A stretch of 64,000 bases of DNA from Mycolicibacterium anyangense (GTDB lineage Bacteria > Actinomycetota > Actinomycetes > Mycobacteriales > Mycobacteriaceae). This document shows positions 40,037 to 52,840 of this stretch, in pieces. Each line of letters opens with the position of its first letter. Position 1 is the first letter of the stretch. The notes beneath the pieces are model-generated. The model searched no databases. It worked only from the letters and a program-made list of their open reading frames with translations, and was not told the DNA's origin. Position numbers and translations under genes: made by a program. Location: contig NZ_AP022620.1 in assembly GCF_010731855.1 (NCBI RefSeq), positions 558,001 to 622,000 of the forward strand. Direction: 5' to 3'.

Positions 40037-40795
40037 GTGACCGCGGCGGGCAGGAGCGAAGCGACTCCGGAGTTGGTCGGAGCACCGGAACCGCAGCAGG
40101 CCTCTGAGGCGCTGCTGCGTCCGGTGCGGCCCGGTAACGCCTTCGAGGACACTGTGAGCCGGCTGTTGCAGACCATCCGGCTCGGTGTGCTCGCTCCGGG
40201 GGACTCGCTGCCGCCAGAGCGGGAACTGGCCGCCCGGCTCGGCGTCAGCCGCGACACCGTGCGTGAGGCCATCAAGTCGCTGGCCGACGCCGGCTACCTG
40301 GTGTCGCGGCGCGGCCGCTACGGCGGAACCTTCCTGGCCGAGGAACTGCCCGCCCCGAGCGACGAAGCGGTCCGGGTCAATCGGGCCGACCTCGACGACG
40401 CGCTGCTGCTGCGCGAGATCCTCGAAGTCGGTGCCGCCCGGATGGCCGCCAGCCGCACCCTGACCGCGGCCGAGCGGGAAGGCCTGTGGTCGCGGCTGGC
40501 CGATGTGCGAGCCGCCGCCCCCGACGACTACCGGCGGCTGGATTCGCGGTTGCATCTGGCGATCGCCGAAGCCGCCGGCTCACCGTCGCTGGTGCCCCTG
40601 GTCGCCGAGAACCGGATGCGGCTCAATGCGCTGCTGGATCAGATTCCGTTGTTGCGGCGCAACATCACTCACTCCGACGAGCAGCACGAAGCGATCGTTA
40701 TCGCGATCCTCGCCGGTGACGTCGCGGCGGCCGAGTCGGCTATGCGGGCCCACGTCGCGGGGTCTGCCGCGCTGCTGCACGGCTTCCTGGACTGA
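40037..40795 (+). CDS. GntR-family regulator with FCD domain
   Basis: 252 residues from GTG 40037. Winged helix LAPGDSLPPERELAARLGVSRDTVREA is a GntR signature; the all-helical C-terminal FCD domain shows metal-binding-type residues (D/R...H...H pattern, e.g. LDSRLHLAIAEAAGS and HEAIVIAILAGD). It probably controls the gamma-glutamylation operon. Its 3' end overlaps the convergent membrane-protein gene by 56 bases. Confidence 0.9.
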   Translation: MTAAGRSEATPELVGAPEPQQASEALLRPVRPGNAFEDTVSRLLQTIRLGVLAPGDSLPPERELAARLGVSRDTVREAIKSLADAGYLVSRRGRYGGTFLAEELPAPSDEAVRVNRADLDDALLLREILEVGAARMAASRTLTAAEREGLWSRLADVRAAAPDDYRRLDSRLHLAIAEAAGSPSLVPLVAENRMRLNALLDQIPLLRRNITHSDEQHEAIVIAILAGDVAAAESAMRAHVAGSAALLHGFLD

Positions 40796-41276
40796 GTCGC
40801 AGATCGGGCTGTGACCGGTCCAGCGGTGTGAGGACGGCCCGCAGCCACAGCAGGGTGAGCGCTGCGCAGGACAGCACGCCGGCCACCATCCACGGACCCG
40901 GGCCCGGGCACTGGGTAGACGGTGTGGTCTGGTGCCACCACACCACGCCCAGGCCGGCCGCGGTGCCCAGCCCGCCACTGTAGGCGGCCCCGGTGCACCA
41001 GCGAAATTGCCTGCGCAGCAGGGCGATCGAGGACAGCACGGCTGTCGCGCTGAACAGTGTCAGCGCCACCGAACAGATCGCGATGCCCGGCGTTGCGCGC
41101 ATGGCGCGGGTGTGCACATCTGACCAGCCCAACAGCGCCGCCACCGTCAGGACCGCAACCGCCACGCCGGTGGCGCGGGCGCGGCGCCGACTGATCCAGA
41201 TGTCGTCGAGCACCTGGCGCTCGATACGCCGGAACATTGCGTCCAGGTGGCCGTGGCTGCGGGTGGGCACGTTCAC
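40740..41276 (-). CDS. Hypothetical four-helix membrane protein downstream of sigC
   Basis: 178 residues from GTG 41276, 32 bp after sigC on the same strand. A hydrophilic, His-containing N-terminal segment of about 35 residues (RSHGHLDAMFRRIERQV) is followed by four hydrophobic helices and a basic C terminus. I do not recognise the family. Co-transcription with an ECF sigma factor and a cytosolic N-terminal tail make an anti-sigma or accessory sensor role possible, but no ZAS or other anti-sigma motif is present. Confidence 0.65.
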   Translation of the reverse strand: MNVPTRSHGHLDAMFRRIERQVLDDIWISRRRARATGVAVAVLTVAALLGWSDVHTRAMRATPGIAICSVALTLFSATAVLSSIALLRRQFRWCTGAAYSGGLGTAAGLGVVWWHQTTPSTQCPGPGPWMVAGVLSCAALTLLWLRAVLTPLDRSQPDLRLSPGSRAAARQTPRRGPA

Positions 41277-41308
41277 TGGTCGGATCCCGAGGCGTCGGGG
41301 TTCCCGGC

Positions 41309-41863
41309 TCAGCCCACCTGGTCGTCGCGGTTGGCGGCGACCATCAGCTCATCGCGGGCCCGGGCCACCCGAGAGCGGATGGTGCCCACCGGGCACCCGC
41401 AGACCTCGGCGGCTTCGGCATAGGACAGCCCGAGCACCTGGGTGAGCATGAGCGCCTGCCGGCGATCCTCGTCCAGGCCGTCGAGCAGCAGCCGGATCTC
41501 GATGATGTCCTCGAAGCGGGCCGCGCTGCGGCGGGTGTCGAGTACCTGATCGAGGTCGACGGTGTAGCCCGCGTTGCGGGGGCGGGCCTGGTTGCGCCGG
41601 ATCTGGTCGACCACCACGCGTCGCGCGATGGATAGCAGCCAGGTGCGGGCCGAGGAGCGCCCGGAGAACCGGGGCAGCGAACCCAGCGCCCGCAGGTAGG
41701 TCTCCTGGGTCAGGTCGTCGGCGTTGCCCGGGTCGCCGAGGAAGGCGACGGTGCGCCACACATCGCGCTCGGTGGCCCGGATGAACGAGTCGAGAGCGGC
41801 GTTGTCACCGCGTCCGGCGGCCAGCGCCCATGAGGTCACCTGGTCGTCGTCGCGTTCAGCCAC
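41309..41863 (-). CDS. sigC: ECF RNA polymerase sigma factor SigC
   Basis: 184 residues from GTG 41863, giving the same length as M. tuberculosis SigC (about 185). Region 2 contains DDLTQETYLRALG and RTWLLSIARRVVVDQIR; region 4 contains LTQVLGLSYAEAAEVCGCPVGTIRSRVARARD, nearly identical to SigC as I recall it. A -10-like TAGTCT (minus strand, 41876-41871) ends 7 bases before the GTG, suggesting a leaderless message. SigC of M. tuberculosis has been linked to copper acquisition and ctpB/nrp expression; here the gene is physically divergent from a CtpB-like ATPase. Longer frames reading from 42064 lack conservation and were not used. Confidence 0.92.
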   Translation of the reverse strand: MAERDDDQVTSWALAAGRGDNAALDSFIRATERDVWRTVAFLGDPGNADDLTQETYLRALGSLPRFSGRSSARTWLLSIARRVVVDQIRRNQARPRNAGYTVDLDQVLDTRRSAARFEDIIEIRLLLDGLDEDRRQALMLTQVLGLSYAEAAEVCGCPVGTIRSRVARARDELMVAANRDDQVG

Positions 41864-42054
41864 GACAAGCAGACTAGGGGATCGCCGCCGGGCCCACACA
41901 GCCAGGCCCGTCGCACCGGACGCGGCACCCCCGGGAGTACTTTGGAGGGGGTCGTACCGCCCGGCACCAGGGATTTCTTTTTCCCGGGAACCGAACGCCG
42001 TCGGCATCCGACCAATCGACTCGAGCCGAACACTGTCGATCGACGAGGAGGACG
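41864..42054. promoter_or_regulatory. Divergent sigC / ctpB promoter region
   Basis: 191 bp without a gene. It contains the 10-bp palindrome TTCCCGGGAA at 41981-41990, which puts the ECF -35-like word GGGAA on both strands. On the plus strand GGGAAC (41986-41991) lies 63 bases before the ATPase ATG. I could not place a convincing matching -10, so SigC dependence is a hypothesis. A ribosome site GAGGAGGA precedes ATG 42055. Confidence 0.45.
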
Positions 42055-44304
42055 ATGACGGCATCCGTCGTCGGCGGCGTCGCCGACACCGACGTCCGCC
42101 GGGTCCAACTCGACGTCTCGGGAATGTCCTGTGCGGCCTGCGCTGCCCGCGTCGAGACCAAGCTCAACAAGGTCGACGGCGTGCACGCCACCGTGAACTA
42201 CGCCACCCGGGTGGCCACCATCGACGCCGCCGATTCGGTGGCCACCGACGACCTGTGTGAGGTGGTGCGCAGGGCCGGCTACGACGCCGCGCCGCGCAGC
42301 GCGACGCCTGTCGAGATGGCCGACCCCGACGAGCAGACCGCGCGCAGCCTGCTGCGCCGCCTGGCGATCGCTGCGGTGCTGTTCGTGCCGTTGGCCGATC
42401 TGTCGGTGATGTTCGCCGTGGTCCCCAGCACCCGATTTACCGGATGGGCCTGGGTATTGACCGCGCTGGCGCTGCCGATCGTCACCTGGGCGGCCTGGCC
42501 GTTCCACCGCGTCGCGCTGCGCAATGCCCGACACGGCACCGCGTCGATGGAGACGCTGATCTCGGTCGGCGTCACCGCGGCGACGCTGTGGTCGCTGGCC
42601 ACGATCTTCGGCGGCCACGGTCAGCGCCAGACCCACGGGATCTGGGACGCCCTGCTCGGCAGTGACGCGATCTACCTTGAAGTCGCCGCCGGTGTCACGG
42701 TGTTCATCCTGGCCGGCCGCTATTTCGAGGCCAAGGCCAAGTCGCGGGCCGGCAGCGCCCTGCGCGCGTTGGCGGCGCTGAGCGCCAAGAACGTCACGGT
42801 TCTGCTCGCCGACGGCACCGAGATGGTGATTCCGGCCGACGAACTCAAAGAACAGCAGCGCTTCGTGGTGCGCCCCGGCGAGACCATCGCCGCCGACGGC
42901 CTGGTGGTCGAGGGCAGCGCGGCGATCGATGTGAGCGCGATGACCGGCGAATCAACACCGGCCCGAGCCCATCCCGGTGGTCAGGTGATCGGTGGCACCG
43001 TGGTGCTCGACGGCCGGTTGATCGTCGAGGCCGCCGCAGTGGGCGCCGACACCCAGTTCGCCGGCATGGTGCGTCTGGTCGAGGAGGCCCAGGCGCAGAA
43101 GGCCGACGCGCAGCGGCTGGCCGACAAGGTCGCCGCGGTGTTCGTGCCCACGGTGTTCGTGATCGCCGCGGTGACGGCCGCAGGCTGGCTGCTGTCCGGG
43201 GCCGGTGCCGATCGCGCATTCTCGGCGGCGCTGGCGGTGCTGGTGATCGCCTGCCCCTGCGCCCTGGGCCTGGCGACTCCGACGGCGATGATGGTGGCCT
43301 CGGGGCGGGGCGCCCAGCTCGGCATCTTCCTCAAGGGCTACCGCGCGCTGGAGGCCATTCGCGCCGTGGACACCGTGGTGTTCGACAAGACCGGCACCCT
43401 GACCACCGGACACCTCACGGTCACCGGCATCAGCGCCGCACCGGGCTGGGTCGCCGACGAGGTGCTCGCCATGGCGGCGGCCGTCGAGGCGGCCTCCGAA
43501 CACGCTGTCGCCGTGGCCATCGCCGGTGCGGTGACCGACCACCGCGACGTTGCAGACTTCCGCTCCTCTGCCGGACGAGGCGTCACCGGTCACGTCTCGG
43601 GAAGCCATGTCACGGTCGGCCGCCCGTCGTGGGTGCGCGGTGACTCGGCATTGGGTGCCGAGCTCGAGGGGTTCTGGCGGGCGGGCGAAGCACGCGGGGA
43701 GACAGTCGTTTTCGTCGCGGTGGACGGCGAGGTGTGCGGTGCGGTCGCGGTGGCCGACGCGGTCAAGGAGTCGGCGGCCCAAGCGGTGGCGGACCTGCAC
43801 AGCAGGGGATTGCGCACGGTGCTGCTCACCGGCGACAACGCCTCGGCGGCGGCTGCGGTAGCCGCCCAGGTCGGTATCGACGAGGTGATCGCCGAGGTGC
43901 TGCCCGACGGCAAGGTCGACGTCATCGAGCAACTGCGCGACGGTGGCCAGGTGGTCGCGATGGTCGGGGACGGGATCAACGACGGCCCCGCCCTGGCGTC
44001 GGCGGATCTGGGCCTGGCGATCGGGCGCGGCACCGACGTCGCGATCGGGGCGGCCGACATCATCCTGGTGCGCGACGATCTCGACATCGTCCCGCAGGCA
44101 CTCGATCTGGCCCGCGCCACGATGCGCACCATCCGGGTCAACCTGTTCTGGGCCTTCGGCTACAACGTGGCGGCCATCCCGATCGCCGCGGCAGGCCTGC
44201 TCAACCCGCTCATCGCCGGTGCGGCGATGGCGTTCTCCTCGTTCTTCGTCGTCTCGAACAGCTTGCGGCTGCGCACCTTCGGGACTCCCGGTCGGAAAGG
44301 CTGA
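42055..44304 (+). CDS. ctpB: Copper-translocating P1B-type ATPase (CtpB-like)
   Basis: 749 residues. One N-terminal HMA domain with metal motif GMSCAAC (C26, C29), then eight predicted helices including the transmembrane metal site C400-P-C402 ([12 protein letters not shown]), phosphorylation motif D444-KTGTLT, TGE actuator loop (MTGES) and the hinge [10 protein letters not shown]. The CPC site plus CxxC HMA marks Cu(I) transport. The N terminus and neighbourhood resemble M. tuberculosis CtpB (Rv0103c), so the symbol is tentative between CtpA, CtpB and CtpV. Directly followed by an HMA-domain chaperone gene. Confidence 0.88.
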
Positions 44305-44520
44305 ATGGTGTCGGAGCAGACGTTCAAGGTCGAAGGACTGCACTGCCAGAGCTGCGTGCGGGTGGTGAGCGCCGCGCTGGAGGCGCTGCCCGCCGTCAGC
44401 GGCGTCGCGGTGGACCTCGGCGAGCCGTCGATCGTGCGGGTACAGGCCGACTCCGACCTGTCCGTCGCGCAGGTCCAGGCCGCCCTCGACGAAGAGGGCG
44501 AATACTCCGTCGTCGCCTGA
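44305..44520 (+). CDS. HMA-domain copper chaperone
   Basis: 71 residues starting on the base after the ctpB stop. A single ferredoxin-like HMA domain with metal motif LHCQSC and the usual betaalphabeta-betaalphabeta length. CopZ-type proteins hand Cu(I) to the partner ATPase; here the motif lacks the preceding Met of MxCxxC (Leu-His instead), which may alter affinity. Confidence 0.88.
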   Translation: MVSEQTFKVEGLHCQSCVRVVSAALEALPAVSGVAVDLGEPSIVRVQADSDLSVAQVQAALDEEGEYSVVA

Positions 44521-44559
44521 CCGGGAACTGAATCCCGTTGCCCCACGACCAGATAGAGC

Positions 44560-44868
44560 GTGAGGCGACAACGATTTCCGCGTCCGTCGGCCGACGAATG
44601 GGACTGGCAGCGCCGCGGGGTGTGCCGCGCCGCCGACTCGTCGGTGTTCTTCGGACCTGACCACGAGCCGCGAGCCGCGCGTATCCGCCGCGAACAGATC
44701 GCCAAGAACCTCTGCCACGGCTGCCCCGTGCTGGCCAAATGCCGGAGCCATGCCCTCAACGCGTGCGAGCCCTACGGCATCTGGGGTGGTCTCTCGGCAT
44801 CGGAGCGCGCGCAGCTGTCGCGGCCTGCGCGCCGCGACGTGGACAGCTCCTGCAGCATCGCGTTGTAA
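44560..44868 (+). CDS. WhiB-family iron-sulfur regulator
   Basis: 102 residues from GTG 44560. The four cluster cysteines are C22 (GVCR) and CHGCPVLAKC (C52, C55, C61), followed by the beta-turn motif GIWGG. Actinobacterial WhiB proteins bind [4Fe-4S] and RNA polymerase sigma to tune transcription in response to redox signals. The last residues (SSCSIAL) are encoded by sequence copied from the 3' end of the copD-like gene (see repeat 44840-44867). Position in a copper/SOD locus suggests redox-metal control. Confidence 0.88.
   Translation: MRRQRFPRPSADEWDWQRRGVCRAADSSVFFGPDHEPRAARIRREQIAKNLCHGCPVLAKCRSHALNACEPYGIWGGLSASERAQLSRPARRDVDSSCSIAL
44840..44867 (+). repeat. 28-bp exact direct repeat, copy 1
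   Basis: Identical to 45920-45947, exactly 1080 bp downstream; similarity continues upstream to about 44829 (GCGCCGCG in both) with 3 mismatches. Copy 1 encodes the C terminus and stop region of WhiB. Confidence 0.92.
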
Positions 44869-44896
44869 GTCCACGGACTGATCCAGCATCGATCAC

Positions 44897-44924
44897 TTCA
44901 TCTGTTCAGATAAACAGGTATTGT
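44897..44924 (+). promoter_or_regulatory. Candidate ArsR-type operator and -10 of the SOD promoter
   Basis: TTCATCTG (44897-44904), nine bases, then ACAGGT (44914-44919); internal CTGTT/AACAG inverted repeat. TATTGT at 44919-44924 is a TANNNT -10 and the motif lies between it and the -35 position, so a bound repressor would block transcription. The same TTCATCTG-N9-ACAG-R-T arrangement is found at 50925 upstream of the cobalt/nickel transporter. Confidence 0.55.
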
Positions 44925-44995
44925 GGCAGTCGGGCGCTGATCACCACTTCAGCCAGCGATCCCAACGGTGACCACATGCTGATGAGAGGGTGTTC

Positions 44996-45607
44996 ATGGC
45001 CGAGTACGTCCTACCCGAGCTTGATTACGACTACGGCGCGCTGGAGCCCCACATCTCCGGCGAGATCAACGAGATTCACCACAGCAAGCACCACGCGGCC
45101 TATATCAAGGGCCTCAACGACACGCTGGCCACACTCGAGGAGGCGCGCGCCAAGGAGGATCATGGCGCGATCTTCCTCAATGAGAAGAACCTGGCCTTCC
45201 ATCTCGGCGGTCATGTCAACCACTCGATCTGGTGGAAGAACCTCTCGCCGGACGGCGGTGACAAACCTACCGGGGACCTGGCCGCCGCCCTCGACGATGG
45301 CTTCGGATCTTTCGATGCCTTCCGGACTCAATTCAGTGCGGCCGCCAACGGTTTGCAGGGATCCGGCTGGGCGGTGCTGGGATACGAGAGTGCCAGCGCC
45401 CGGCTGCTGACATTTCAGCTCTACGACCAGCAAGCCAATGTGCCGCCCGGGATCACACCGCTGCTGCAGGTGGACATGTGGGAGCACGCCTATTACCTGC
45501 AGTACAAGAACGTCAAGGCCGACTACGTGACGGCATTCTGGAACGTGGTGAACTGGGCTGATGTGCAGGAACGGTTCACCGCGGCAACCATGCGCCATGG
45601 TGTGTAA
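44996..45607 (+). CDS. Superoxide dismutase, Mn-type of the Fe/Mn family
   Basis: 203 residues from ATG 44996, with GAGAGGG about 5 bases upstream; a GTG at 44990 would add two residues. Metal ligands H28, H76, D160 and H164 are present (INEIHH, HVNH, VDMWEH). Gln145 (LYDQQAN) replaces the His145 of the M. tuberculosis iron enzyme, which is the known mark of manganese-type mycobacterial SODs. No signal peptide. Seemingly a second SOD gene placed inside a metal island; flanked by the 28-bp duplication. Confidence 0.93.
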
Positions 45608-45634
45608 GGCGTTGTCCGGCAGAGCTTTCTGATC

Positions 45635-45898
45635 ATGGCCGACGACGAGAAGACCCGCTGGGCCATCGACGTGATGACGGCCTGGGCGCACGCTGAGCGC
45701 GACGACTTCATGCATGACCGTATCGACGAGTATCTCAGCGAACCTGGCGGGGCGCCGGGGCTGATCACCGGTTTGGTTAATCTGTCCAGCTTGCTGCTCA
45801 TGGGATTGGAGGCCACTACCGGCAAGGCCACCCCCGAGATACTGCAGGCGATCGCATCAACGCTGTCGCGGCACGAACACACACCGGGCGACTCCTAG
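45635..45898 (+). CDS. Conserved-type hypothetical protein
   Basis: 87 residues, 27 bp after the SOD gene. Soluble and mostly helical; rich in acidic residues with HAERDDFMHDRIDEYL at the start. I do not recognise the family. Probably co-transcribed with SOD and part of the segment bounded by the 28-bp repeats. Confidence 0.65.
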   Translation: MADDEKTRWAIDVMTAWAHAERDDFMHDRIDEYLSEPGGAPGLITGLVNLSSLLLMGLEATTGKATPEILQAIASTLSRHEHTPGDS

Positions 45899-45905
45899 GC
45901 CGTCC

Positions 45906-47849
45906 TCAGCGCCGCGTCTTGGACAGCTCCTGCAGCATCGCGTTGTAGGCGTCCAGATCGTCGTCGTAGTGTGCGTCGGCGTGCCGGTCGGTACGGGTGG
46001 CGAGCTTGCGGTCCTGGCGCGTCCACTGCACCACCAGCGCGATCACCACCACGATGATCGGCAATTCGCTGGAACCCCAAGCGATTGCGCCGCCAAGATG
46101 CTGATCGTCGAGCAGGCTGGACAGCCAAGGCAAGTCGAGCTGGCCGTAGAAGTTCTCGCCGATGATCGAGGTCATGGTCATGGTGGCGACGCCGAAGAAC
46201 GCGTGAAACGGCATGACTGCGAACAACAGCGCGAGCCGGCCGATGAACGGCAACCGGCGCGGTCCGGGGTCGATGCCGATGATGCCCCAGAAGAACAGGT
46301 AGCCGGTGATCAGGAAGTGCACGCTCATGAACTCGTGGCCCCAGTGGTAGCGCACCAGGGTGTCGAACAGCGGGGTGAAGTACACCGCATACAGCGACCC
46401 GACGAACAGGATGAACGCCGTGGCCGGATGGGACAGGAACTTCGACACCGGTGAGTGCACCAGCCACAGCAGCCATTCCCGCGGGCCGGGCGGTTGGTCG
46501 GCGGCCGCGGCGGGCAGCGTCCGCAGGGCCAGGGTGATCGGGGCGCCGAGAACCAGGAAGACCGGGATGAACATGTTGAGCGCCATGTGCTCGGACATGT
46601 GCACGCTGAACATCGCCGAGCCATAGGCCCGAACCCCGGAACTGGTCGCCAACAGCAGGGCCAGGCAGCCGAACAGCCACGCGACCGTTCGGCCCGGCGG
46701 CCAGGCGTCGCCGCGGCGGCGCAGCCGGACCACCGCCACCACGTACAGCGCGGCCAGCACCACCGCGCCGAGACCGAGCAGGACATCGAAGCGCCACATC
46801 GTCAGCAGCCGAACCACATTCGGGGGCTGCGGCAGCTCGTAACCGAGGAAGACATCCCACGCGGTGAACCTGTGGGACAGCAGGCGCGGCGCCGTCTGCA
46901 CCGCCATCGCCGCCACCGCGGCGAAGAACACGATCATCGCCACCGCGCCGACCGGACCGCGCCGCGTCTCGGCCCGCGTCCGCAGCCTGGTGACGTCGAC
47001 CAGCCAGGTGATCAGCAGCACCGCTGCAGCCAGCAGGCCCAACCGCCCGTAGTCCGAGTGCAGCAGCGAGCCGGGATCGGTCAGCAGCAACAGCAGCAGC
47101 CCGCCGTACACCAGCCCCACCGCGCCGGCCATCACCTCGACCAGGAGCACCCGGCGCCGCAGGTCGTCGCGGGGCGGGGCGATCACGGCGCTGATCTTCA
47201 TCCCGGCCAGCACCGCGGCCGCGAGCGCGAAGACGATGACGGCACTGGTCGCGTAGTCGTGGTCCGGACCCTGGCCGGCGTTGCCGGTGACCGCGATCGC
47301 GATCACCGCGATAAGGCCGGGCACCAGGAGCACCACATGCCAGATCCATCGCACCGTCAGCCGCAGCACCGCCGCCACCACCGCGGCGAAGATCGCCACC
47401 GCGACCCAGCCGCGGGCCAGCTCCGATGCGCCCACCGCGGTGCCGATCGCGCCGCTGCTCACCAGGCGGGATACCGGGATGCCGGAATCGGCGGCCGCCT
47501 GCACTACCACCATCGCCGCGGCGGTCAGCACCCACAGCCCGGCGATGCGTTCGGCGAGCAGATGAACCCGGAAGGAGTCCGCGTCGAGCAGGCCCCGCTC
47601 GTCGGGGCGTGCGGTGATCACGATGAACACCAGCCCGCCCAGGCACCCGGCACCGGCCAGGGTCGCGGTGAAGTGACCCACGAGTTCACCGATGCTGGTC
47701 GGCAGGCCGGGGAACGAGTCACCGGTCTCCCGGAATCGGGCGGCTCCGGACGCCACCGCATAACCCGCCAGCGCTGCGGCCATGGCGAGGTATCCGCCGA
47801 CCAGGACCCATCTGCCGGCCGGTCGGCTGCCCGTGCGGCTCGACTTCAT
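45906..47849 (-). CDS. CopD/CtaG-family copper-related membrane protein (Rv0102-like)
   Basis: 647 residues from ATG 47849. About fourteen membrane helices in two parts: an N-terminal CopD-like copper resistance domain and a C-terminal cytochrome-oxidase-assembly (CtaG/caa3) domain with [19 protein letters not shown] and MPFHAFFG, whose His and Met residues could bind copper. The architecture matches Rv0102, which in M. tuberculosis sits beside ctpB. Likely imports or holds copper for oxidase assembly. Its -10-like TAGACT overlaps the palindrome at 47860-47878 and ends 7 bases before ATG, implying a leaderless, repressible promoter. Confidence 0.88.
45920..45947 (+). repeat. 28-bp exact direct repeat, copy 2
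   Basis: Same sequence and orientation as 44840-44867. Here it is antisense to the last codons of the CopD-like gene, whose C terminus ([13 protein letters not shown]) looks like the original use of the sequence. Confidence 0.92.
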
Positions 47850-47856
47850 CGCCGCT

Positions 47857-47878
47857 AGTCTACGACTCTTCGTCGTAG
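47857..47878 (-). promoter_or_regulatory. BlaI/CopY-like operator overlapping the CopD-like gene promoter
   Basis: Perfect 7-bp arms CTACGAC (47860-47866) and GTCGTAG (47872-47878) with a 5-base centre. On the minus strand the second arm runs into TAGACT (47862-47857), the presumed -10. A CTACKAC...GTMGTAG pattern also occurs at 49617-49641. Confidence 0.6.
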
Positions 47879-47959
47879 TCAATCCCGTGCGGTGGGAACT
47901 TCGGGCCGCCGCGGCTCGACCAATTCCAGACACGTTCCCGAGACGAAAGTGGATGCCCG

Positions 47960-48619
47960 GTGATCCAGGATCTGACGTTGCGTTGGATCGTCACGCTGTT
48001 GTTCGTCCTGAGCGCCGCCGAGTGCGTCTTCGCGATCGCCGTCGGGCATCGGCGGTGGCCCAGCGTCATCAGCTACTCCCTACACGCGATCATGGCGGTG
48101 GCGATGGCGGTGATGGCGTGGCCGCGCGGTGCCGCCCTGCCGACGATCCCGCCGATGGTGTTCTTTGCGCTCGCGACGGTCTGGTTCATCGTGATCGCCG
48201 CTACCGCCGCGGGGTCCGGCCATCGGATCGCGACGATCTACCACGCGCTGATGATGCTCGCGATGGCCTGGATGTACGCGGTGATGAACGGCCGGCTGCT
48301 ACCCGCCGGGTCCGCGCCGTCCGCGGCCGCCGGCGGCCATCACGGCGGGCACGCCAGCATGCCGGGCATGGACATGGGGGACATGCCGGGCATGGACATG
48401 GGGGACTCGACCGCCGCCGCCACCGGGCATCCCGGCTGGATCGCCGCGCTGAACTGGGTGTGCACCATCGGCTTCGCCGTTGCGGCCGTGGTCTGGCTGA
48501 TCCGCTATCTTGCTGCGCGCCAATCGCGTTCGGACGGTGACGCGGTGCATCAACTCGGGCTGCTCAGCCAGGCGATGATGGCGATCGGCATGGCCGTCAT
48601 GTTCGGCGTGATGCTGTAG
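47960..48619 (+). CDS. DUF5134 membrane protein with Met/His-rich loop
   Basis: 219 residues from GTG 47960. Five to six helices in two groups separated by a loop of [20 protein letters not shown] type, rich in Met, His and Asp, a classic extracytoplasmic copper-binding composition. DUF5134 proteins are frequent beside CopD-like genes in actinobacteria. It is divergent from the CopD-like gene and could share the palindrome-based control (arms end 82 bases before this start). Confidence 0.8.
48359..48406 (+). repeat. Two perfect 24-bp tandem repeats in coding sequence
   Basis: 48359-48382 and 48383-48406 are identical; each encodes MPGMDMGD. The in-frame unit enlarges the Met/Asp-rich metal loop and could vary in copy number between strains. 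Confidence 0.95.
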
Positions 48620-48639
48620 GCACTCGTGATCCGGTAGGC

Positions 48640-48670
48640 GCTGCGGCCCGGTCGCCGACCGGGCCGCAGC
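48640..48670. terminator. Hairpin terminator between convergent genes
   Basis: 14-bp perfect arms GCTGCGGCCCGGTC (48640-48653) and its complement (48657-48670) with a 3-base loop, between the DUF5134 gene and the convergent secreted-protein gene. Very stable; no T-run. Confidence 0.8.
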
Positions 48671-48679
48671 TGCGTCGTC

Positions 48680-49282
48680 CTAGCAGGAACCCTGCGCCCG
48701 CAGGGTGGTTTTCGCCGCCTTGACGGTGCATGCCTTGGACTTGCCGGCTGCTGCTGCCGGCGTGACCGCGGTCGTGCGGTGCGGGGTGGTGCTGGCCGAC
48801 ACTCCGGACAACGCCCTGATCAAGGTCGCGTCCAGATCTGCTTCGTCGGGCAGTCGCACCCCCTGTGCCTGCAGGCTGTCGTAGGCGGTCTTGATCAGGC
48901 CGCCGTTGAGCAGGCTGACGAACGTCCCGTTGGATCCGTGGGTGGGGTGGTCGTAATTCGGTGTGCCGAAGGCGGTGTGGTAACCCACGCCGAGCGCTGA
49001 GTCGTCGAGAGCCTTGTTGAACGGCGTGCTCTGGTTGAACACCCGGTCACCGAGTGCCTGCACGATGCGGACACCGGGAGCCGGGTTGCCCGGCGCGCTC
49101 TCGCTGCCGAAGCCCGGGCGCCCGACGGCATCGCCCGACGGAGTGCTGTAGCCGTGGGCCGACGCGGTGCCTGCGCCCGGGGCGACCACTGTGAGAGCGG
49201 TGGCCAGCGCGGTGGCGCCCAGGACGGATCCGACGAGGAAGCGATGCGAGGTGCGGTGCTGGGCGATGGTCGCGGTAGTCAT
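48680..49282 (-). CDS. Secreted protein of unknown function
   Basis: 200 residues from ATG 49282 (AAAGG ribosome site about 11 bases upstream). Cleavable signal peptide ending in AGTASAHG, so the mature protein begins near HGYSTPSGD with an N-terminal His. Contains several His (YHTAFG, YDHPTHGSNG) and two C-terminal Cys (KACTVK, QGSC). It resembles ABM/DUF2599-free secreted actinobacterial proteins only vaguely; function unknown. Second gene of an operon behind the 49617 palindrome, 28 bp after the small His-rich protein. Confidence 0.75.
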   Translation of the reverse strand: MTTATIAQHRTSHRFLVGSVLGATALATALTVVAPGAGTASAHGYSTPSGDAVGRPGFGSESAPGNPAPGVRIVQALGDRVFNQSTPFNKALDDSALGVGYHTAFGTPNYDHPTHGSNGTFVSLLNGGLIKTAYDSLQAQGVRLPDEADLDATLIRALSGVSASTTPHRTTAVTPAAAAGKSKACTVKAAKTTLRAQGSC

Positions 49283-49310
49283 GGATTCGATGCCTTTCGT
49301 TGAGGTGGGA

Positions 49311-49598
49311 TCAGCGGGCCGCGGAGTCGCAGGGAGTGCTGGCGGAGCGGGTGGTGCCGTCGGCGCACACCGACTTCGAGCCGTTGCCGCTGTTGCCGGA
49401 GCTGCTGGTCTTGCCGCCGCCTGCCTTCGCGCTGCCCCCGCTACCGCCACCGCTGTTGCTGTCGCTGCCTGAGTCGGATCCGTGGTCGTGGCCGGGATGG
49501 GCCGTCGCCGGCCCGGCGGGCGCGGTCAGGGTCAGCGCTCCTGCGCTGAGCGCCGCCGCGAGCAGGCGTGTGATGTGACGACTTCGTCTGTGCTGCAT
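49311..49598 (-). CDS. Small secreted Ser/Gly-rich protein with His-rich mature N terminus
   Basis: 95 residues from ATG 49598 with AGGAG 6-7 bases upstream. Signal peptide to about residue 33 (PAGPATA), then HPGHDHGSDSGS and a Ser/Gly/Asn-rich low-complexity tract, ending with two Cys (SVCADG, TPCDSA). The His-Xaa-Xaa-His-Asp-His start is a plausible Cu(II)/Zn site after signal removal. First gene behind the BlaI/CopY-like operator. Confidence 0.75.
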   Translation of the reverse strand: MQHRRSRHITRLLAAALSAGALTLTAPAGPATAHPGHDHGSDSGSDSNSGGGSGGSAKAGGGKTSSSGNSGNGSKSVCADGTTRSASTPCDSAAR

Positions 49599-49616
49599 GG
49601 ATGCTCCTGAGGTCGA

Positions 49617-49641
49617 GAACTACTACCGTGTGTAGTAGTTC
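49617..49641 (-). promoter_or_regulatory. BlaI/CopY-like operator
   Basis: Perfect 9-bp arms GAACTACTA (49617-49625) and TAGTAGTTC (49633-49641) around a 7-base centre; the core TACTAC...GTAGTA matches the TACTACA/TGTAGTA consensus of CopY/BlaI repressors. Located 19-43 bases upstream of the small secreted protein gene on the minus strand. No BlaI-family gene is in the window. Confidence 0.7.
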
Positions 49642-49801
49642 AGGGTGTAGCGGTCCCGCGATCGGGTGTGCGGAGTGGCTAGCTACTCATTCGGTATGCG
49701 GCTGTGGCGCGTGCCCACAGGCAACTCCCAGCATCCGCACAGACAATCAGTCGTGCCGTAGGGCGAAAAGTTCCTCGCCGCCGTGGGGCAGGCCGCCGAG
49801 A

Positions 49802-50524
49802 TCAGGCGGCCGAGCCGTCGGTGGGGTAGAGGTGGCCGCGGCGGCGTCCACGAACGGCGTTGTCGGGCAGTACCAGATCTGCGGCCTCGGCACTGCCCTG
49901 GGGCCCGGGGGTGCGGGTATCGCGCCACACCAGCAGTGCCAGCAGGGTGCCGAGCAGGACGGGAAGGTGGCTCAGGATCCGGTCCACGGTGACCGCTCCG
50001 GCGATCGCATCGTTGACGACGTAAACGGTGAGGACCGCGGTGAACACGGTCAGCACTCCGGCCAGTCCGGCGGCGGCCGTCGGCCGCAGTGCGGCGATCA
50101 CCATCACCGCGCCGAGCGCCGCCGACCATGCGGTCGACTCGTTGAGGAGGTGACCGCTCATCATGGCGTGGTGACCGGCCGAGGTGCCGACGTTGGCGCC
50201 GAAGCCCTGCGCGGCGGCCAGGGCGAGCTGGATGCCACCGACGATTCCGAGCGCCCAGCGTCGCCAGATCACCGCCGTGCCCAGGGGGAGCGTCCGTCGG
50301 GCCGGGACGGCGGGTGCGGCGACGGCCTGCACCTGGGAGCGGCCGGCCAGTCGGCGCAGTAGCTGGGTCTGGTCGACGGCACGGGTGTACCAGTCCCGGC
50401 AGGCGTCACAGGTGGCGACGTGCTCGTCGACACGGGGGCCCGGCACGGGCTCGCGTTCCCCGTCGATCCGAGCCGACAGCGCCTCTCTGGCGACCTCGCA
50501 GTCCACGATCCAATAGTCGCGCAC
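49802..50524 (-). CDS. Zinc-finger (zf-HC2) anti-sigma-like membrane protein (Rv0093c-like)
   Basis: 240 residues from GTG 50524; a GTG at 50503 (VDCEVAREAL) is a likely alternative start. The N-terminal cytosolic part has Cys (VDCEV), then H-x3-C-x2-C (DEHVATCDAC), the ZAS zinc finger of anti-sigma factors. About five helices follow, with a His/Met-rich extracytoplasmic loop AGHHAMMSGH that could sense copper. Architecture and sequence recall M. tuberculosis Rv0093c. No cognate sigma factor is adjacent, making the nearby sigC (8 kb away) the obvious candidate partner. Confidence 0.8.
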   Translation of the reverse strand: MRDYWIVDCEVAREALSARIDGEREPVPGPRVDEHVATCDACRDWYTRAVDQTQLLRRLAGRSQVQAVAAPAVPARRTLPLGTAVIWRRWALGIVGGIQLALAAAQGFGANVGTSAGHHAMMSGHLLNESTAWSAALGAVMVIAALRPTAAAGLAGVLTVFTAVLTVYVVNDAIAGAVTVDRILSHLPVLLGTLLALLVWRDTRTPGPQGSAEAADLVLPDNAVRGRRRGHLYPTDGSAA

Positions 50525-50584
50525 GACGGCCCGATTGTTCCAGCTGATCAGAATTGGCCCGGTGCTCGACTAGATTCCTTAGCT

Positions 50585-50917
50585 ATGCACGGGCCAGGCG
50601 ACGAGGTGACGGTGGAACGCGCCTCCTCGGCGCTGGCCGACGTCGACATCCACGGCTGGACTCAGCGCTTCGACCTGCTCAGTGATCCACATCGGCTGGA
50701 GATCCTGCTCTGCCTGCACCGTGCTCCCGGCATCTGCGTCGGCGACCTGGCCTCGGCGCTGGGCCGGTCGGAGAACGCCGTCTCGCAGGCCCTTCGGGTA
50801 CTGCGTCAGCAGGGCTGGGTGACCTCGACCCGGGTCGGCCGGCTGGTCAGCTACCGGCTGGAGGACCACACCGTCCACGATCTGCTGCACTGGATCGGCG
50901 CGGCACACAACGAGTAA
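50585..50917 (+). CDS. ArsR/SmtB-family metalloregulator
   Basis: 110 residues from ATG 50585; TAGATT (50571-50576) ends 8 bases earlier. Winged HTH FDLLSDPHRLEILLCL and ALGRSENAVSQALRVLRQQGWV. The helix-5 metal region reads EDHTVHDLLHWIGAAHNE: His and Asp residues are present but the usual DxHx10HxxE spacing is altered, so the sensor site is not identical to NmtR, KmtR or SmtB. Directly upstream of the cobalt/nickel ECF operon with a palindrome between them, so it probably regulates it. Confidence 0.9.
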   Translation: MHGPGDEVTVERASSALADVDIHGWTQRFDLLSDPHRLEILLCLHRAPGICVGDLASALGRSENAVSQALRVLRQQGWVTSTRVGRLVSYRLEDHTVHDLLHWIGAAHNE

Positions 50918-50924
50918 CCGACAG

Positions 50925-50968
50925 TTCATCTGAACATGTAGACAGATGACTGCCGGCGGCGCTAGGTT
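50925..50968 (+). promoter_or_regulatory. Operator and promoter of the cobalt/nickel ECF operon
   Basis: TCATCTG (50926-50932) and CAGATGA (50943-50949) form a perfect 7-bp inverted repeat with a 10-base centre containing ACATGT. -35-like TAGACA (50939-50944) and -10 TAGGTT (50963-50968) are 18 bases apart, so the palindrome covers the -35. Shares TTCATCTG-N9-ACAG-R-T with the SOD promoter. Confidence 0.6.
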
Positions 50969-51033
50969 GGATGCGGGCGCCGGACGGGTGCCTGCGAGCC
51001 GAGGAGCCCGGGTTGAGCGTCCAGATCACCGCT

Positions 51034-51720
51034 ATGCACATGAGTGACGGTCTGGTGAACGCTCCCACCTCGGTGCTCTTCGCGGCGCTGGCGATCGCGG
51101 CGGTGGGTTTGTGCGCCTGGCGGGCGCGCACCGAACTCGACGAGCGGGCCGTTCCGCTGGCCGGTCTGGTCGCGGCTTTCATCTTCGCGGTGCAGATGAT
51201 CAACTTCCCGATCCTGCCCGGCGTCAGCGGCCATCTGCTGGGCGGCGCGCTGGCCGCGATCCTGGTCGGCCCGTTCACCGGCGTGCTGTGTATCGCGATC
51301 GTCTTGGTGGTCCAGTCGCTGCTGTTCGCCGACGGCGGTGTGAGCGCGCTCGGGATGAACATCACCAACATGGCCCTGATCGGGGTGGCGGCCGGCTACT
51401 CGACCGCGGTGCTGCTGTTCGCCGTCGTCCGCCGGCGCGGCAATGGCCGATCGGTGCCGGCGCTCGGAGTCGTCGCCTTCCTGTCTGCTGTCATCGGAAC
51501 AGTCTGTGCAGCAATGGGTTTCGTCATCGAATATGCGATCGGTGGTGCCGCGCCGGTGTCGTTGACGACGGTGGCCACCTACATGCTGGGCACGCACGTG
51601 CTGATCGGCATCGGTGAAGGCGTGATCACCGCGGTCACCGTCATGGCGGTGGCCCGGGCCCGGCCGGACCTGGTGTACCTGCTGCGGCGCACCCGTACCG
51701 AGACGGTGGTCCCGGCGTGA
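51034..51720 (+). CDS. cbiM: Cobalt/nickel ECF transporter S component (CbiM/NikM)
   Basis: 228 residues. Start set at ATG 51034 because the family needs Met-His-(Met/Ile) as the true N terminus (MHMSDGL), where the free amino group and His2 bind the metal; ATG 50971 and TTG 51013 would extend it, and 50971 lies too close to the -10. Seven helices with GLVNAPTS, the HLLGG turn and ALGMNITNMALIG are diagnostic. It imports Co2+ or Ni2+. Cobalamin genes elsewhere in the window favour cobalt as one use. Confidence 0.93.
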   Translation: MHMSDGLVNAPTSVLFAALAIAAVGLCAWRARTELDERAVPLAGLVAAFIFAVQMINFPILPGVSGHLLGGALAAILVGPFTGVLCIAIVLVVQSLLFADGGVSALGMNITNMALIGVAAGYSTAVLLFAVVRRRGNGRSVPALGVVAFLSAVIGTVCAAMGFVIEYAIGGAAPVSLTTVATYMLGTHVLIGIGEGVITAVTVMAVARARPDLVYLLRRTRTETVVPA

Positions 51721-52058
51721 GGCGGCATTGGCGGTTCTGGGCGGGGTTCGCCGCGGCCATCGTGCTGATCGCCGGGGTGGTGTCCTACTTCGCCAGCTCC
51801 AGCCCCGATGGGCTGGACTCGGCCACCCTGCAGGGCTGCCAGGTGGTGGCGACCGACCACGGTGAGCAGCTGACCGGACAGTGCATCGCCCAGCACGCCA
51901 CCGAACACCCCCTGTCGGTGTCTCCGCTGGCCGACTACACGGTGTTCGGGCACGCCGGCAGCGTGGGCGCCGCCGGGATCATCGGCGCCGTGGTGGTGCT
52001 CGCGCTGGCCGGCGGTGCGTTCTGGCTGCTGGCCCGCAGCCGCCGCTCCGGGAGCTGA
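51717..52058 (+). CDS. PDGLE-domain subunit of cobalt/nickel transporter (CbiN/NikN-like)
   Basis: 113 residues from GTG 51717, overlapping the cbiM stop. Two helices flank an extracytoplasmic segment containing SPDGLDSAT, the PDGLE motif with Asp for Glu, and several His and a pair of Cys. This small protein assists metal loading of CbiM/NikM. Confidence 0.88.
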   Translation: MRRHWRFWAGFAAAIVLIAGVVSYFASSSPDGLDSATLQGCQVVATDHGEQLTGQCIAQHATEHPLSVSPLADYTVFGHAGSVGAAGIIGAVVVLALAGGAFWLLARSRRSGS

Positions 52059-52063
52059 CGCTG

Positions 52064-52840
52064 ATGGGTGCGGGCCATTCCCATCCGCTGTACCGCGACG
52101 GGCACTCGGTGGTGCACCACGCGCCCGCCGAGGTCAAGATCGCCGGGCTTGTTGCGTTCGTGCTGGCGGTGGTCGCCACGCCACGGGAGATGATCTGGCC
52201 CTTCGCGCTGTACGCGGTGATCGTGCTCGTCGTGTGGCGGGTGGCGCGGATTCCCTTGCGCTGGATCCTGCCCCGCATGCTCATCGAAGCACCGTTCCTG
52301 GTGCTGGCGGTGCTGCTGCCGTTCGCCGAGGGCGGCCAGCGGGTTCATGTCGCCGGACTGCAGCTGTCGGTGGCCGGGCTGTGGGCGGCCTGGGGCATCG
52401 TCGTCAAGGGAACCCTGGGCGTCGCCGCGTCGCTGACCGTGGCCGCGACCACGTCGGCGCGGGAACTGCCGCTGGCGCTGAGCAGGCTCGGGGTGCCCGG
52501 ACTGATCACCTCCATGCTCGTCCTGATGATCCGCTACATCGACCTGCTCTCGGCCGAGATCAGCCGGATGCGGATGGCGCGGATCTCCCGGGGTGACTCG
52601 CCGCGTGCCCTGCACCAGGCCGGTGCCATTGCCAAAGGTGTTGGTGCCCTGTTCCTTCGGTCCTATGAGCGCGGTGAGCGGGTGTACCTGGCAATGACCT
52701 CGCGTGGTTTCGACGGCCGGGTGCCGGAGCTGGCCATCGTCGGTGCCCGGCCGCGGGCGACCTCGGTGCAGTGGATAGGTGCGTTGACGCCCGCCGCGGC
52801 CGCGATCACGGTGGCGGGTGCGGCATGGATCCTGCGATGA
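52064..52840 (+). CDS. cbiQ: Cobalt/nickel ECF transporter transmembrane component (CbiQ)
   Basis: 258 residues from ATG 52064. EcfT family with RMRMARISRGDSP and AMTSRGFDGRVPE, the two coupling motifs (A-R-G/S type). N terminus AGHSHPLYRDGHSVVHH is His-rich, unusual for the family and possibly metal-handling. Confidence 0.92.
   Translation: MGAGHSHPLYRDGHSVVHHAPAEVKIAGLVAFVLAVVATPREMIWPFALYAVIVLVVWRVARIPLRWILPRMLIEAPFLVLAVLLPFAEGGQRVHVAGLQLSVAGLWAAWGIVVKGTLGVAASLTVAATTSARELPLALSRLGVPGLITSMLVLMIRYIDLLSAEISRMRMARISRGDSPRALHQAGAIAKGVGALFLRSYERGERVYLAMTSRGFDGRVPELAIVGARPRATSVQWIGALTPAAAAITVAGAAWILR

What the first reader, a model, noticed from the sequence alone, without database searches (positions are those of the whole stretch)
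40740..50524. SigC placed inside a copper locus, with two unassigned anti-sigma candidates
Seen: sigC is divergent from a CtpB-like Cu(I) ATPase plus chaperone, and within 9 kb lie a Rv0102-like CopD/CtaG protein and a Rv0093c-like zf-HC2 membrane protein. From memory, in M. tuberculosis sigC is elsewhere (Rv2069) while Rv0093c, Rv0102 and ctpB cluster together, and SigC has been tied to copper acquisition and ctpB. Here regulator and targets are linked. No anti-sigma factor is established for SigC. The zf-HC2 protein (H-x3-C-x2-C, plus a His/Met-rich outer loop) and the four-helix protein co-directional with sigC are natural candidates, suggesting a copper-sensing membrane switch.
Basis: partly seen in the sequence, partly recalled or inferred. 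Interest (0 to 1): 0.82.

Follow-up and report, generated by a model that had tools for sequence, protein, structure and literature searches.

The report
SigC and its membrane anti-sigma partner
In this mycobacterium a gene switch for copper shortage (SigC) sits beside the copper genes it most likely turns on and beside the membrane protein that most likely holds it in check, and comparison of many genomes shows that the switch and this membrane protein belong together.

Summary
In detail: sigC, a Cu(I)-ATPase/chaperone pair, a CtaG protein, a DUF5134 protein and a zf-HC2 membrane protein lie within 10 kb. The two anti-sigma candidates part ways. The zf-HC2 protein is very probably SigC's partner. 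In 98 same-genus genomes it occurs in 61 of 61 with SigC and 2 of 37 without. In the order it lies within 300 bp of sigC in 53 of 61 visible cases, in four orientations and 10 families. In 26 of the 98 genomes both share one open frame. The 40740 protein fails the co-occurrence test (17 of 61 versus 5 of 37) and looks like a SigC target. New here: a promoter motif, GGGAAC-N17-CGAC[CT]A, precedes ctpB, DUF5134, the 40740 gene, a whiB-like gene and, looser, the zf-HC2 gene (likely feedback). Its two best strict sites outside precede a DUF1775-CopC gene run and a PepSY_TM gene. Prior art limits novelty: a putative anti-SigC ("rscA") near sigC, and fusion of sigC to Rv0093c in the M. avium complex, are in print. 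Binding, copper sensing by invariant histidines, and release on copper starvation are inferred.

The parts
41309..41863 (-). sigC, ECF sigma factor (regions 2 and 4)
   Evidence: NCBIfam SigC equivalog 241 bits > 219; Pfam Sigma70_r2 and r4_2; best PDB matches 2o7g/2o8x, deposited as 'Probable RNA polymerase sigma-C factor'
49802..50524 (-). rscA candidate: zf-HC2 anti-sigma domain plus membrane domain (about four helices) and a basic tail; possible start near 50506 (GTG)
   Evidence: Pfam zf-HC2; profile matches anti-sigma RsiW 5wuq, E 5e-4; co-occurrence and linkage; fusions
50396..50500 (-). zinc-binding anti-sigma domain; ligands C9, H35, C39, C42
   Evidence: H35, C39, C42 in 252 of 252 distinct relatives, C9 in 250 with 2 gaps
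50135..50188 (-). His/Met-rich loop, inferred extracytoplasmic, ending in invariant H125 and near-invariant E129
   Evidence: H125 in 252 of 252, E129 in 251 of 252; the loop's other His/Met vary; topology inferred from hydropathy
49967..50011 (-). second loop with D172 and H186, inferred extracytoplasmic
   Evidence: H186 in 252 of 252, D172 in 251 of 252
42055..44304 (+). CtpB-like Cu(I) P1B ATPase, predicted SigC target
   Evidence: Pfam/NCBIfam; motif upstream in 25 of 26 loci
44305..44520 (+). HMA copper chaperone, runs on from ctpB
   Evidence: Pfam HMA 47 bits
47960..48619 (+). DUF5134 membrane protein with His/Met-rich stretch, predicted SigC target
   Evidence: Pfam DUF5134 122 bits; motif in 12 of 17 loci
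45906..47849 (-). CtaG-family membrane protein, part of the locus; motif not general (4 of 20 loci)
   Evidence: Pfam Caa3_CtaG 306 bits
40740..41276 (-). 178-aa membrane protein; predicted SigC target, not the anti-sigma
   Evidence: motif upstream in 11 of 13 loci; below the cut-off of the Rv2732c family, 48.2 < 60 bits
44560..44868 (+). WhiB-like protein, predicted SigC target
   Evidence: Pfam Whib 78 bits; motif in 2 of 2 loci
41277..41305 (-). SigC-type promoter GGGAAC-N17-CGACCA, 40740 gene
   Evidence: PWM 15.5
41986..42014 (+). SigC-type promoter, ctpB
   Evidence: PWM 25.3; part of the training set
44523..44551 (+). SigC-type promoter, whiB-like gene
   Evidence: PWM 11.1
47894..47922 (+). 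SigC-type promoter, DUF5134 gene
   Evidence: PWM 22.0
50514..50542 (-). SigC-type promoter (GGAAC-N17-CGACTA) at the zf-HC2 gene, 7 nt before the possible leaderless GTG
   Evidence: PWM 16.8

Best explanation
The locus is a self-contained SigC copper-supply regulon. The zf-HC2 protein (RscA-like) is SigC's dedicated anti-sigma factor: its cytosolic zinc domain holds SigC at the membrane. Its membrane domain, with invariant histidines H125 and H186 placed by inference near the outer face, senses copper or a copper-dependent state. When copper is short SigC is freed and transcribes ctpB and its chaperone, DUF5134, the 40740 membrane protein and a whiB-like gene, and elsewhere a DUF1775-CopC gene run and a PepSY_TM gene, from GGGAAC-N17-CGAC[CT]A promoters. 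It also transcribes its own anti-sigma gene, closing a negative feedback. Shown here: pairing by genomes, domain content, residue conservation, promoter motif. Inferred: binding, inhibition, topology, that SigC is what reads the motif, copper as the signal, and the direction of the signal (taken from M. tuberculosis work, PMC7924339).
For: Co-occurrence 61/61 versus 2/37. Linkage within 20 kb for 60 of 66 SigC rows in the genus. Within 300 bp for 53 of 61 visible rows in the order: 33 divergent, 9 convergent, 6 tandem upstream, 5 tandem downstream, in 10 families. One-ORF fusions in 10 of 20 fetched loci and 43 of 47 named loci of the fused clade. Zinc ligands and H125/H186 fixed. RsiW match, E 5e-4. 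Motif trained on ctpB promoters only, at or above the 99% null level: zf-HC2 11/25 (12 with a misplaced one), DUF5134 12/17, 40740 family 11/13, WhiB 2/2, against 0 of 7, 6, 6, 5, 5, 3 and 2 for SDR, GntR, ArsR, CbiM, p48680, SOD, p49311. Strict motif: 10 sites in 5.70 Mb, 4 in this locus. The two best strict sites outside precede DUF1775-CopC and PepSY_TM genes.
Against: No binding, expression or metal data for this organism. Genome-wide the motif is no commoner than its reversed control (10 against 12; second pattern 14 against 18); only place and score set the true-looking sites apart, and seven sites of the second pattern were not examined. The motif is missing before 14 of 25 zf-HC2 genes, so feedback is not universal. 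sigC itself has it in 1 of 32. SDR upstream scores are shifted up (p 1.4e-3) though none reaches the 95% level. One relative has no His/Met in the loop; only H125 there is fixed. In M. tuberculosis, ctpB was not SigC-dependent in copper-poor medium (PMC7924339). The Fisher p value ignores shared descent. The zf-HC2 gene occurs without SigC in G074 and G091 of the genus and G129, G172, G181 of the order; SigC-like matches without it occur in at least G117 and G220.
Confidence: 0.78

Rival explanations
1. The 40740 membrane protein, co-directional with sigC, is the anti-sigma factor and the zf-HC2 protein only a neighbour.
For: It lies 32 bp downstream of sigC in the window and beside sigC or ctpB in part of the rapid-grower loci; gene order sigma then anti-sigma is common (recalled).
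Against: Present in 17 of 61 SigC genomes and 5 of 37 without; none of the 47 fused-clade loci L087-L133 shows it within the flanks held; has its own SigC-type promoter in 11 of 13 loci; no anti-sigma domain found.
Confidence: 0.03
2. The zf-HC2 protein pairs with SigC but acts as tether, chaperone or activator, or senses zinc, heme or respiratory state rather than copper.
For: In fusions the sigma factor is covalently tied to the membrane domain. Dual anti-sigma/activator behaviour is reported for RskA (PMC7509140, title and start of abstract seen). Two invariant histidines could equally hold heme (inference).
Against: The domain type is that of inhibitory anti-sigma factors such as RsiW; several predicted targets are copper genes.
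Confidence: 0.14
3. SigC needs no anti-sigma factor: it is kept inactive by its own two domains, as proposed for M. tuberculosis SigC, and the zf-HC2 gene is just a SigC target.
For: Proposal described in PMC8999054 (passage read); the zf-HC2 gene carries a SigC-type promoter in 11 of 25 loci.
Against: Does not explain near-perfect co-occurrence, adjacency in four orientations, or fusion.
Confidence: 0.05

Closest known systems
Putative anti-SigC factor RscA in the Mycobacterium mucogenicum clade (PMC6917791, passages read)
   Same: Anti-sigma candidate four or five genes from sigC; both absent together in the M. neoaurum clade; elsewhere on the chromosome in M. tuberculosis.
   Different: The passages read give no copper genes, no promoter motif and no order-wide test; the paper does not name Rv0093c, so that rscA is the same gene is my inference.
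Fused SigC of the M. avium complex / ECF36 with N-terminal DUF2275 (PMC7563442; PMC8999054; passages read)
   Same: Same zf-HC2/membrane domain, same sigma factor; described as fused to the anti-sigma factor.
   Different: In the window the two are separate genes 7.9 kb apart inside a copper locus; the fused gene examined (L100) lies beside cobK and cobM.
RsiW-SigW and other zinc-domain membrane anti-sigma systems
   Same: Zinc anti-sigma domain followed by a membrane part (RsiW match); works-like resemblance.
   Different: Multi-helix membrane domain with invariant histidines instead of a single helix (RsiW topology recalled).
M. tuberculosis SigC copper-starvation response (PMC7924339, passages read)
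   Same: SigC controls ctpB and prevents copper starvation.
   Different: There sigC stands alone, its likely direct targets are ctpB and ppe1-nrp, and no anti-SigC was known to the authors.

Membership tests
SigC (NCBIfam NF007231) | Score above the curated equivalog cut-off | tested here: met
   241 > 219 bits
SigC (ECF36) | Match to the ECF36 group model | not testable with these tools
   Group models not at hand; the 2021 classification paper is not held
Zinc-domain (zf-HC2) membrane anti-sigma factor | Four zinc ligands, C/H-x25-H-x3-C-x2-C (motif form recalled) | tested here: met
   H35, C39, C42 252/252; C9 250 plus 2 gaps
Zinc-domain (zf-HC2) membrane anti-sigma factor | Sequence kinship to a structurally proven anti-sigma domain | tested here: met
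   RsiW 5wuq E 5e-4, modest
Zinc-domain (zf-HC2) membrane anti-sigma factor | Membrane segments after the zinc domain | tested here: met
   Hydropathy, window and fusion; helix number not certain
Zinc-domain (zf-HC2) membrane anti-sigma factor | Gene linked to its sigma factor gene | tested here: met
   60 of 66 rows within 20 kb in the genus; 53 of 61 visible rows within 300 bp in the order
Zinc-domain (zf-HC2) membrane anti-sigma factor | Binds and inhibits the sigma factor | not testable with these tools
   No bench data; structure prediction switched off
DUF2275 (PF10039) | Pfam match | tested here: inconclusive
   Fusion L067 186 bits; window protein no match at 1e-3, though some of its close relatives carry PF10039
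Rv2732c family (NF050115), for the 40740 protein | Score above the curated cut-off | tested here: not met
   48.2 < 60 bits
Copper P1B ATPase | Copper-translocating subfamily model above cut-off | tested here: met
   TIGR01511 509 > 397 bits; substrate not tested

The most novel reading that the evidence does not exclude
Partner exchange: two SigC systems once coexisted, a fused one at the cob locus and a two-gene one in the copper locus. In the lineage of G075 (M. leprae-like by size), and by inference in M. tuberculosis, the fused SigC lost its own anti-sigma half and the copper locus lost its own SigC, so that SigC is now governed in trans by the other system's anti-sigma protein (Rv0093c). 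Evidence: in G075 SigC falls inside the fused clade (15 rows, support 100/99) and its frame still matches the fusion linker, while its zf-HC2 protein falls in the copper-locus clade (8 rows, 100/99). G057 keeps both systems; G015 and G076 keep the fusion plus a copper-locus zf-HC2 gene without a second SigC. One genome carries the exchange so far; M. tuberculosis itself was not in the samples I could recognise.
Probability: 0.4. Interest if true: 0.72.

Novelty: new member of a known kind. Interest (0 to 1): 0.56.

Why it matters
How mycobacteria sense copper shortage, and what restrains SigC, are stated as open questions (PMC7924339). A dedicated membrane anti-sigma factor with a fixed histidine pair, a feedback promoter and a copper-gene regulon would make that question directly testable in harmless laboratory species, and the predicted promoter gives a target list. 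It would also replace the view that SigC works without an anti-sigma factor.

Tried and rejected
The 40740 protein as anti-sigma: rejected on co-occurrence and promoter. The first motif null, drawn from the same loci, was inflated by real sites and was replaced by a null from the window outside the locus. Structure prediction of the fusion, meant to read the anti-sigma/sigma interface, was switched off. The idea that the divergent gene beside fused sigC is the chalkophore operon was dropped: in L100 it is a PPE-family gene, with cobalamin genes nearby. Three of the ten strict motif sites score under 4, two of them inside genes, and a fourth (15.8) lies inside a gene; they are not claimed as promoters. 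One of the 12 zf-HC2 motif hits (L150) has an impossible position and is dropped in the counts of 11. My first residue count of 259 relatives held 7 duplicates; the numbers given are for 252 distinct ones. Rv0093c in PMC10468300 appears only as a table row.
Full report
What is there. The window is G000:C1:558001-622000 of a 5.70-Mb mycobacterial genome; among the loci in my trees the nearest is Mycobacterium sp. M26 (L159). Gene order: 178-aa membrane protein (-), sigC (-), ctpB (+), HMA chaperone (+), whiB-like (+), superoxide dismutase-like (+), CtaG (-), DUF5134 (+), two small unassigned proteins (-), zf-HC2 protein (-), ArsR (+), CbiM-like (+).

Is the zf-HC2 protein SigC's partner? In 98 genomes of the genus, SigC (E <= 1e-30) is in 61 and the zf-HC2/membrane family (E <= 1e-12) in 63. 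All 61 SigC genomes have it, and 2 of 37 without SigC do, G074 and G091 (Fisher 1.4e-24, not corrected for descent). The family is specific: the window's genome has six zf-HC2 Pfam hits but one hit of this profile. Of 66 SigC rows, 30 have it within 100 bp, 2 within 300 bp, 3 at 1.5 kb, 25 at 2.3-18.9 kb, 1 is 1 Mb away (G075) and 5 have none on the same contig. In 150 genomes of the order the family is in 90, of which 87 also have SigC-like matches (E <= 1e-40); three do not (G129, G172, G181), and G117 and G220 have such a match without the family. Of 61 visible SigC rows from the 90 genomes, 53 have it within 300 bp, 1 at 502 bp, 5 within 20 kb and 2 not on the contig. The close pairs come in four relative orientations and ten families, so simple retention of gene order is not the reason.

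Fusion. In 26 of 98 genomes the sigC and zf-HC2 matches report the same open frame (lengths, my count). Of 20 fetched loci, 10 have one ORF; those are all 10 fetched from the 26. Of 47 named loci of the fused clade (L087-L133), 43 are fused; M. shimoidei (L116) and Mycolicibacillus trivialis (L122) have split genes, M. lepraemurium (L107) a broken one, and L092 no zf-HC2 ORF. A protein search with one fusion gave 373 relatives, 120 listed. In M. colombiense (L100) the fused gene stands beside cobK and cobM; PMC7924339 gives cobK as the gene downstream of M. tuberculosis sigC. The fusion is known: PMC7563442 (passage read, citing Manganelli 2014, not seen) and PMC8999054 (passage read).

Anatomy. 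Among 252 distinct relatives H35, C39, C42, W45, Q99, Q106, G109, H125 and H186 never vary; C9 has two gaps, E129 and D172 one exception each. In the fusions both the zinc domain and SigC must be cytosolic, which demands an even number of helices; four fits hydropathy. The profile matches RsiW at E 5e-4.

Promoters. GGAAC-N17-CGAC lies upstream of ctpB in 25 of 26 loci; the exception, Nocardia L163, has it before the zf-HC2 gene. A weight matrix from those 25 sites was tried on other genes of the same loci, against 5,000 pieces of the window outside the locus. At or above the 99% level: zf-HC2 12 of 25 (11 without L150, whose position is impossible), DUF5134 12 of 17, 40740 family 11 of 13, WhiB 2 of 2, CtaG 4 of 20, HMA 1 of 10, SigC 1 of 32, and none of SDR 7, GntR 6, ArsR 6, CbiM 5, p48680 5, SOD 3, p49311 2; SDR scores are shifted up as a set (p 1.4e-3) without reaching the 95% level. 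At the zf-HC2 genes CGACTA stands about 7 nt before GTG or ATG, which suggests a leaderless message. In the window's genome the strict pattern occurs 10 times (reversed control 12), four of them in this locus, each before and along a gene (chance of three or more besides ctpB about 6e-7 if sites fell at random). Of the other six, three score under 4, one (15.8) is inside a gene, and the two best (19.2 and 17.9) stand before a PepSY_TM gene and before a DUF1775-CopC-NicO gene run. A second pattern gave 14 sites (reversed control 18), the same four in the locus and seven not examined. CopC is a copper protein; for DUF1775 (YcnI) that is recalled. In fused-clade loci 40 of 46 have the motif pointing away from the fusion. 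In 6 of 10 looked at the next ORF begins alike, in L100 a PPE-family protein by Pfam; in 4 no ORF met my start limits. One Amycolatopsis (L155) and one Nocardia (L163) locus show the motif before the zf-HC2 gene and before genes for a periplasmic-binding/FecCD transporter; a second Amycolatopsis (L164) only before the zf-HC2 gene.

The 40740 protein. It is in 22 of 98 genomes, 17 of 61 with SigC and 5 of 37 without. It stands beside sigC or ctpB in part of the rapid-grower loci and has a SigC-type promoter in 11 of 13. I read it as an effector of the regulon, function unknown beyond membrane location.

Evolution. Trees of 41 SigC and 43 zf-HC2 domains both set a fused clade of 15 rows apart from the copper-locus groups. 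G057 has both systems. G075 (3.27 Mb in one contig; size suggests M. leprae, an inference) has a SigC of the fused clade whose frame still matches fusion residues 236-457, that is linker plus sigma factor, with no significant match to the zinc/membrane part in the 12 kb searched, and a zf-HC2 protein of the copper-locus clade beside a CtpB-like ATPase gene. Conversely G074 has a zf-HC2 protein of the fused clade and no SigC at my threshold. The exchange of partners is the simplest reading of G075.

Copper. That SigC answers copper shortage rests on M. tuberculosis work (PMC7924339, passages). PMC10449499 (passages) reports that a rip1 mutant's profile is enriched for the sigC gene set, among others, which would fit cleavage of this anti-sigma factor, but it also calls Rip1-linked chalkophore expression sigma factor-independent.

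Prior art. PMC6917791 (passages read) names a putative anti-SigC, rscA, near sigC in the M. mucogenicum clade and reports joint absence in the M. neoaurum clade. Searches: Rv0093c with SigC (2 papers), SigC/copper/anti-sigma (7), C. glutamicum sigC/copper (1), ECF36 (1), fused anti-sigma terms (20), Rv0093c (3), DUF2275 (2), chalkophore/SigC (3), anti-SigC (3), sigC/ctpB/fusion (1). In the passages I read I saw no SigC-type promoter before the anti-sigma gene, no order-wide pairing test and no partner exchange; most listed papers were not opened, and the classification paper of 2021 is not held.

Verdict. Real and well supported; mostly a known, putative pairing confirmed and extended rather than a new kind of system.

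Noticed in passing
G000:C1:2230622-2230650 (L182:1623): SigC-type site before a DUF1775-CopC-NicO gene run: a likely second copper locus of the regulon.
   Followed up: partly
G000:C1:2108522-2108550 (L181:1523): SigC-type site ending 7 nt before the GTG of a PepSY_TM membrane protein gene.
   Followed up: partly
L080:6203-8731 (genome G083): Two mirrored pairs, each a SigC paralogue with a short zf-HC2 ORF (91 and 188 aa) that matches only the first part of the family profile.
   Followed up: no
L087-L133 (fused-clade loci): A SigC-type site points away from the fused gene in 40 of 46 loci; in L100 the divergent gene is of the PPE family.
   Followed up: partly
L155:10563 and L163:13839: In an Amycolatopsis and a Nocardia locus a SigC-type site precedes periplasmic-binding/FecCD ABC transporter genes.
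   Followed up: partly
window 44840-44867 and 45920-45947: A 28-base direct repeat, read by eye, joins the 3' end of the whiB-like ORF and the 3' end of the CtaG gene.
   Followed up: no
window 50585-52840: ArsR regulator and CbiM-like transport genes divergent from the zf-HC2 gene; no SigC motif before ArsR or CbiM (0 of 6 and 0 of 5 loci).
   Followed up: partly
L107:8194-11325: In M. lepraemurium the zf-HC2-SigC fusion ORF is broken while the SigC part stays open.
   Followed up: no
L083:6013-7032 (genome G074): A zf-HC2 protein of the fused clade in a genome with no SigC at E <= 1e-30.
   Followed up: no
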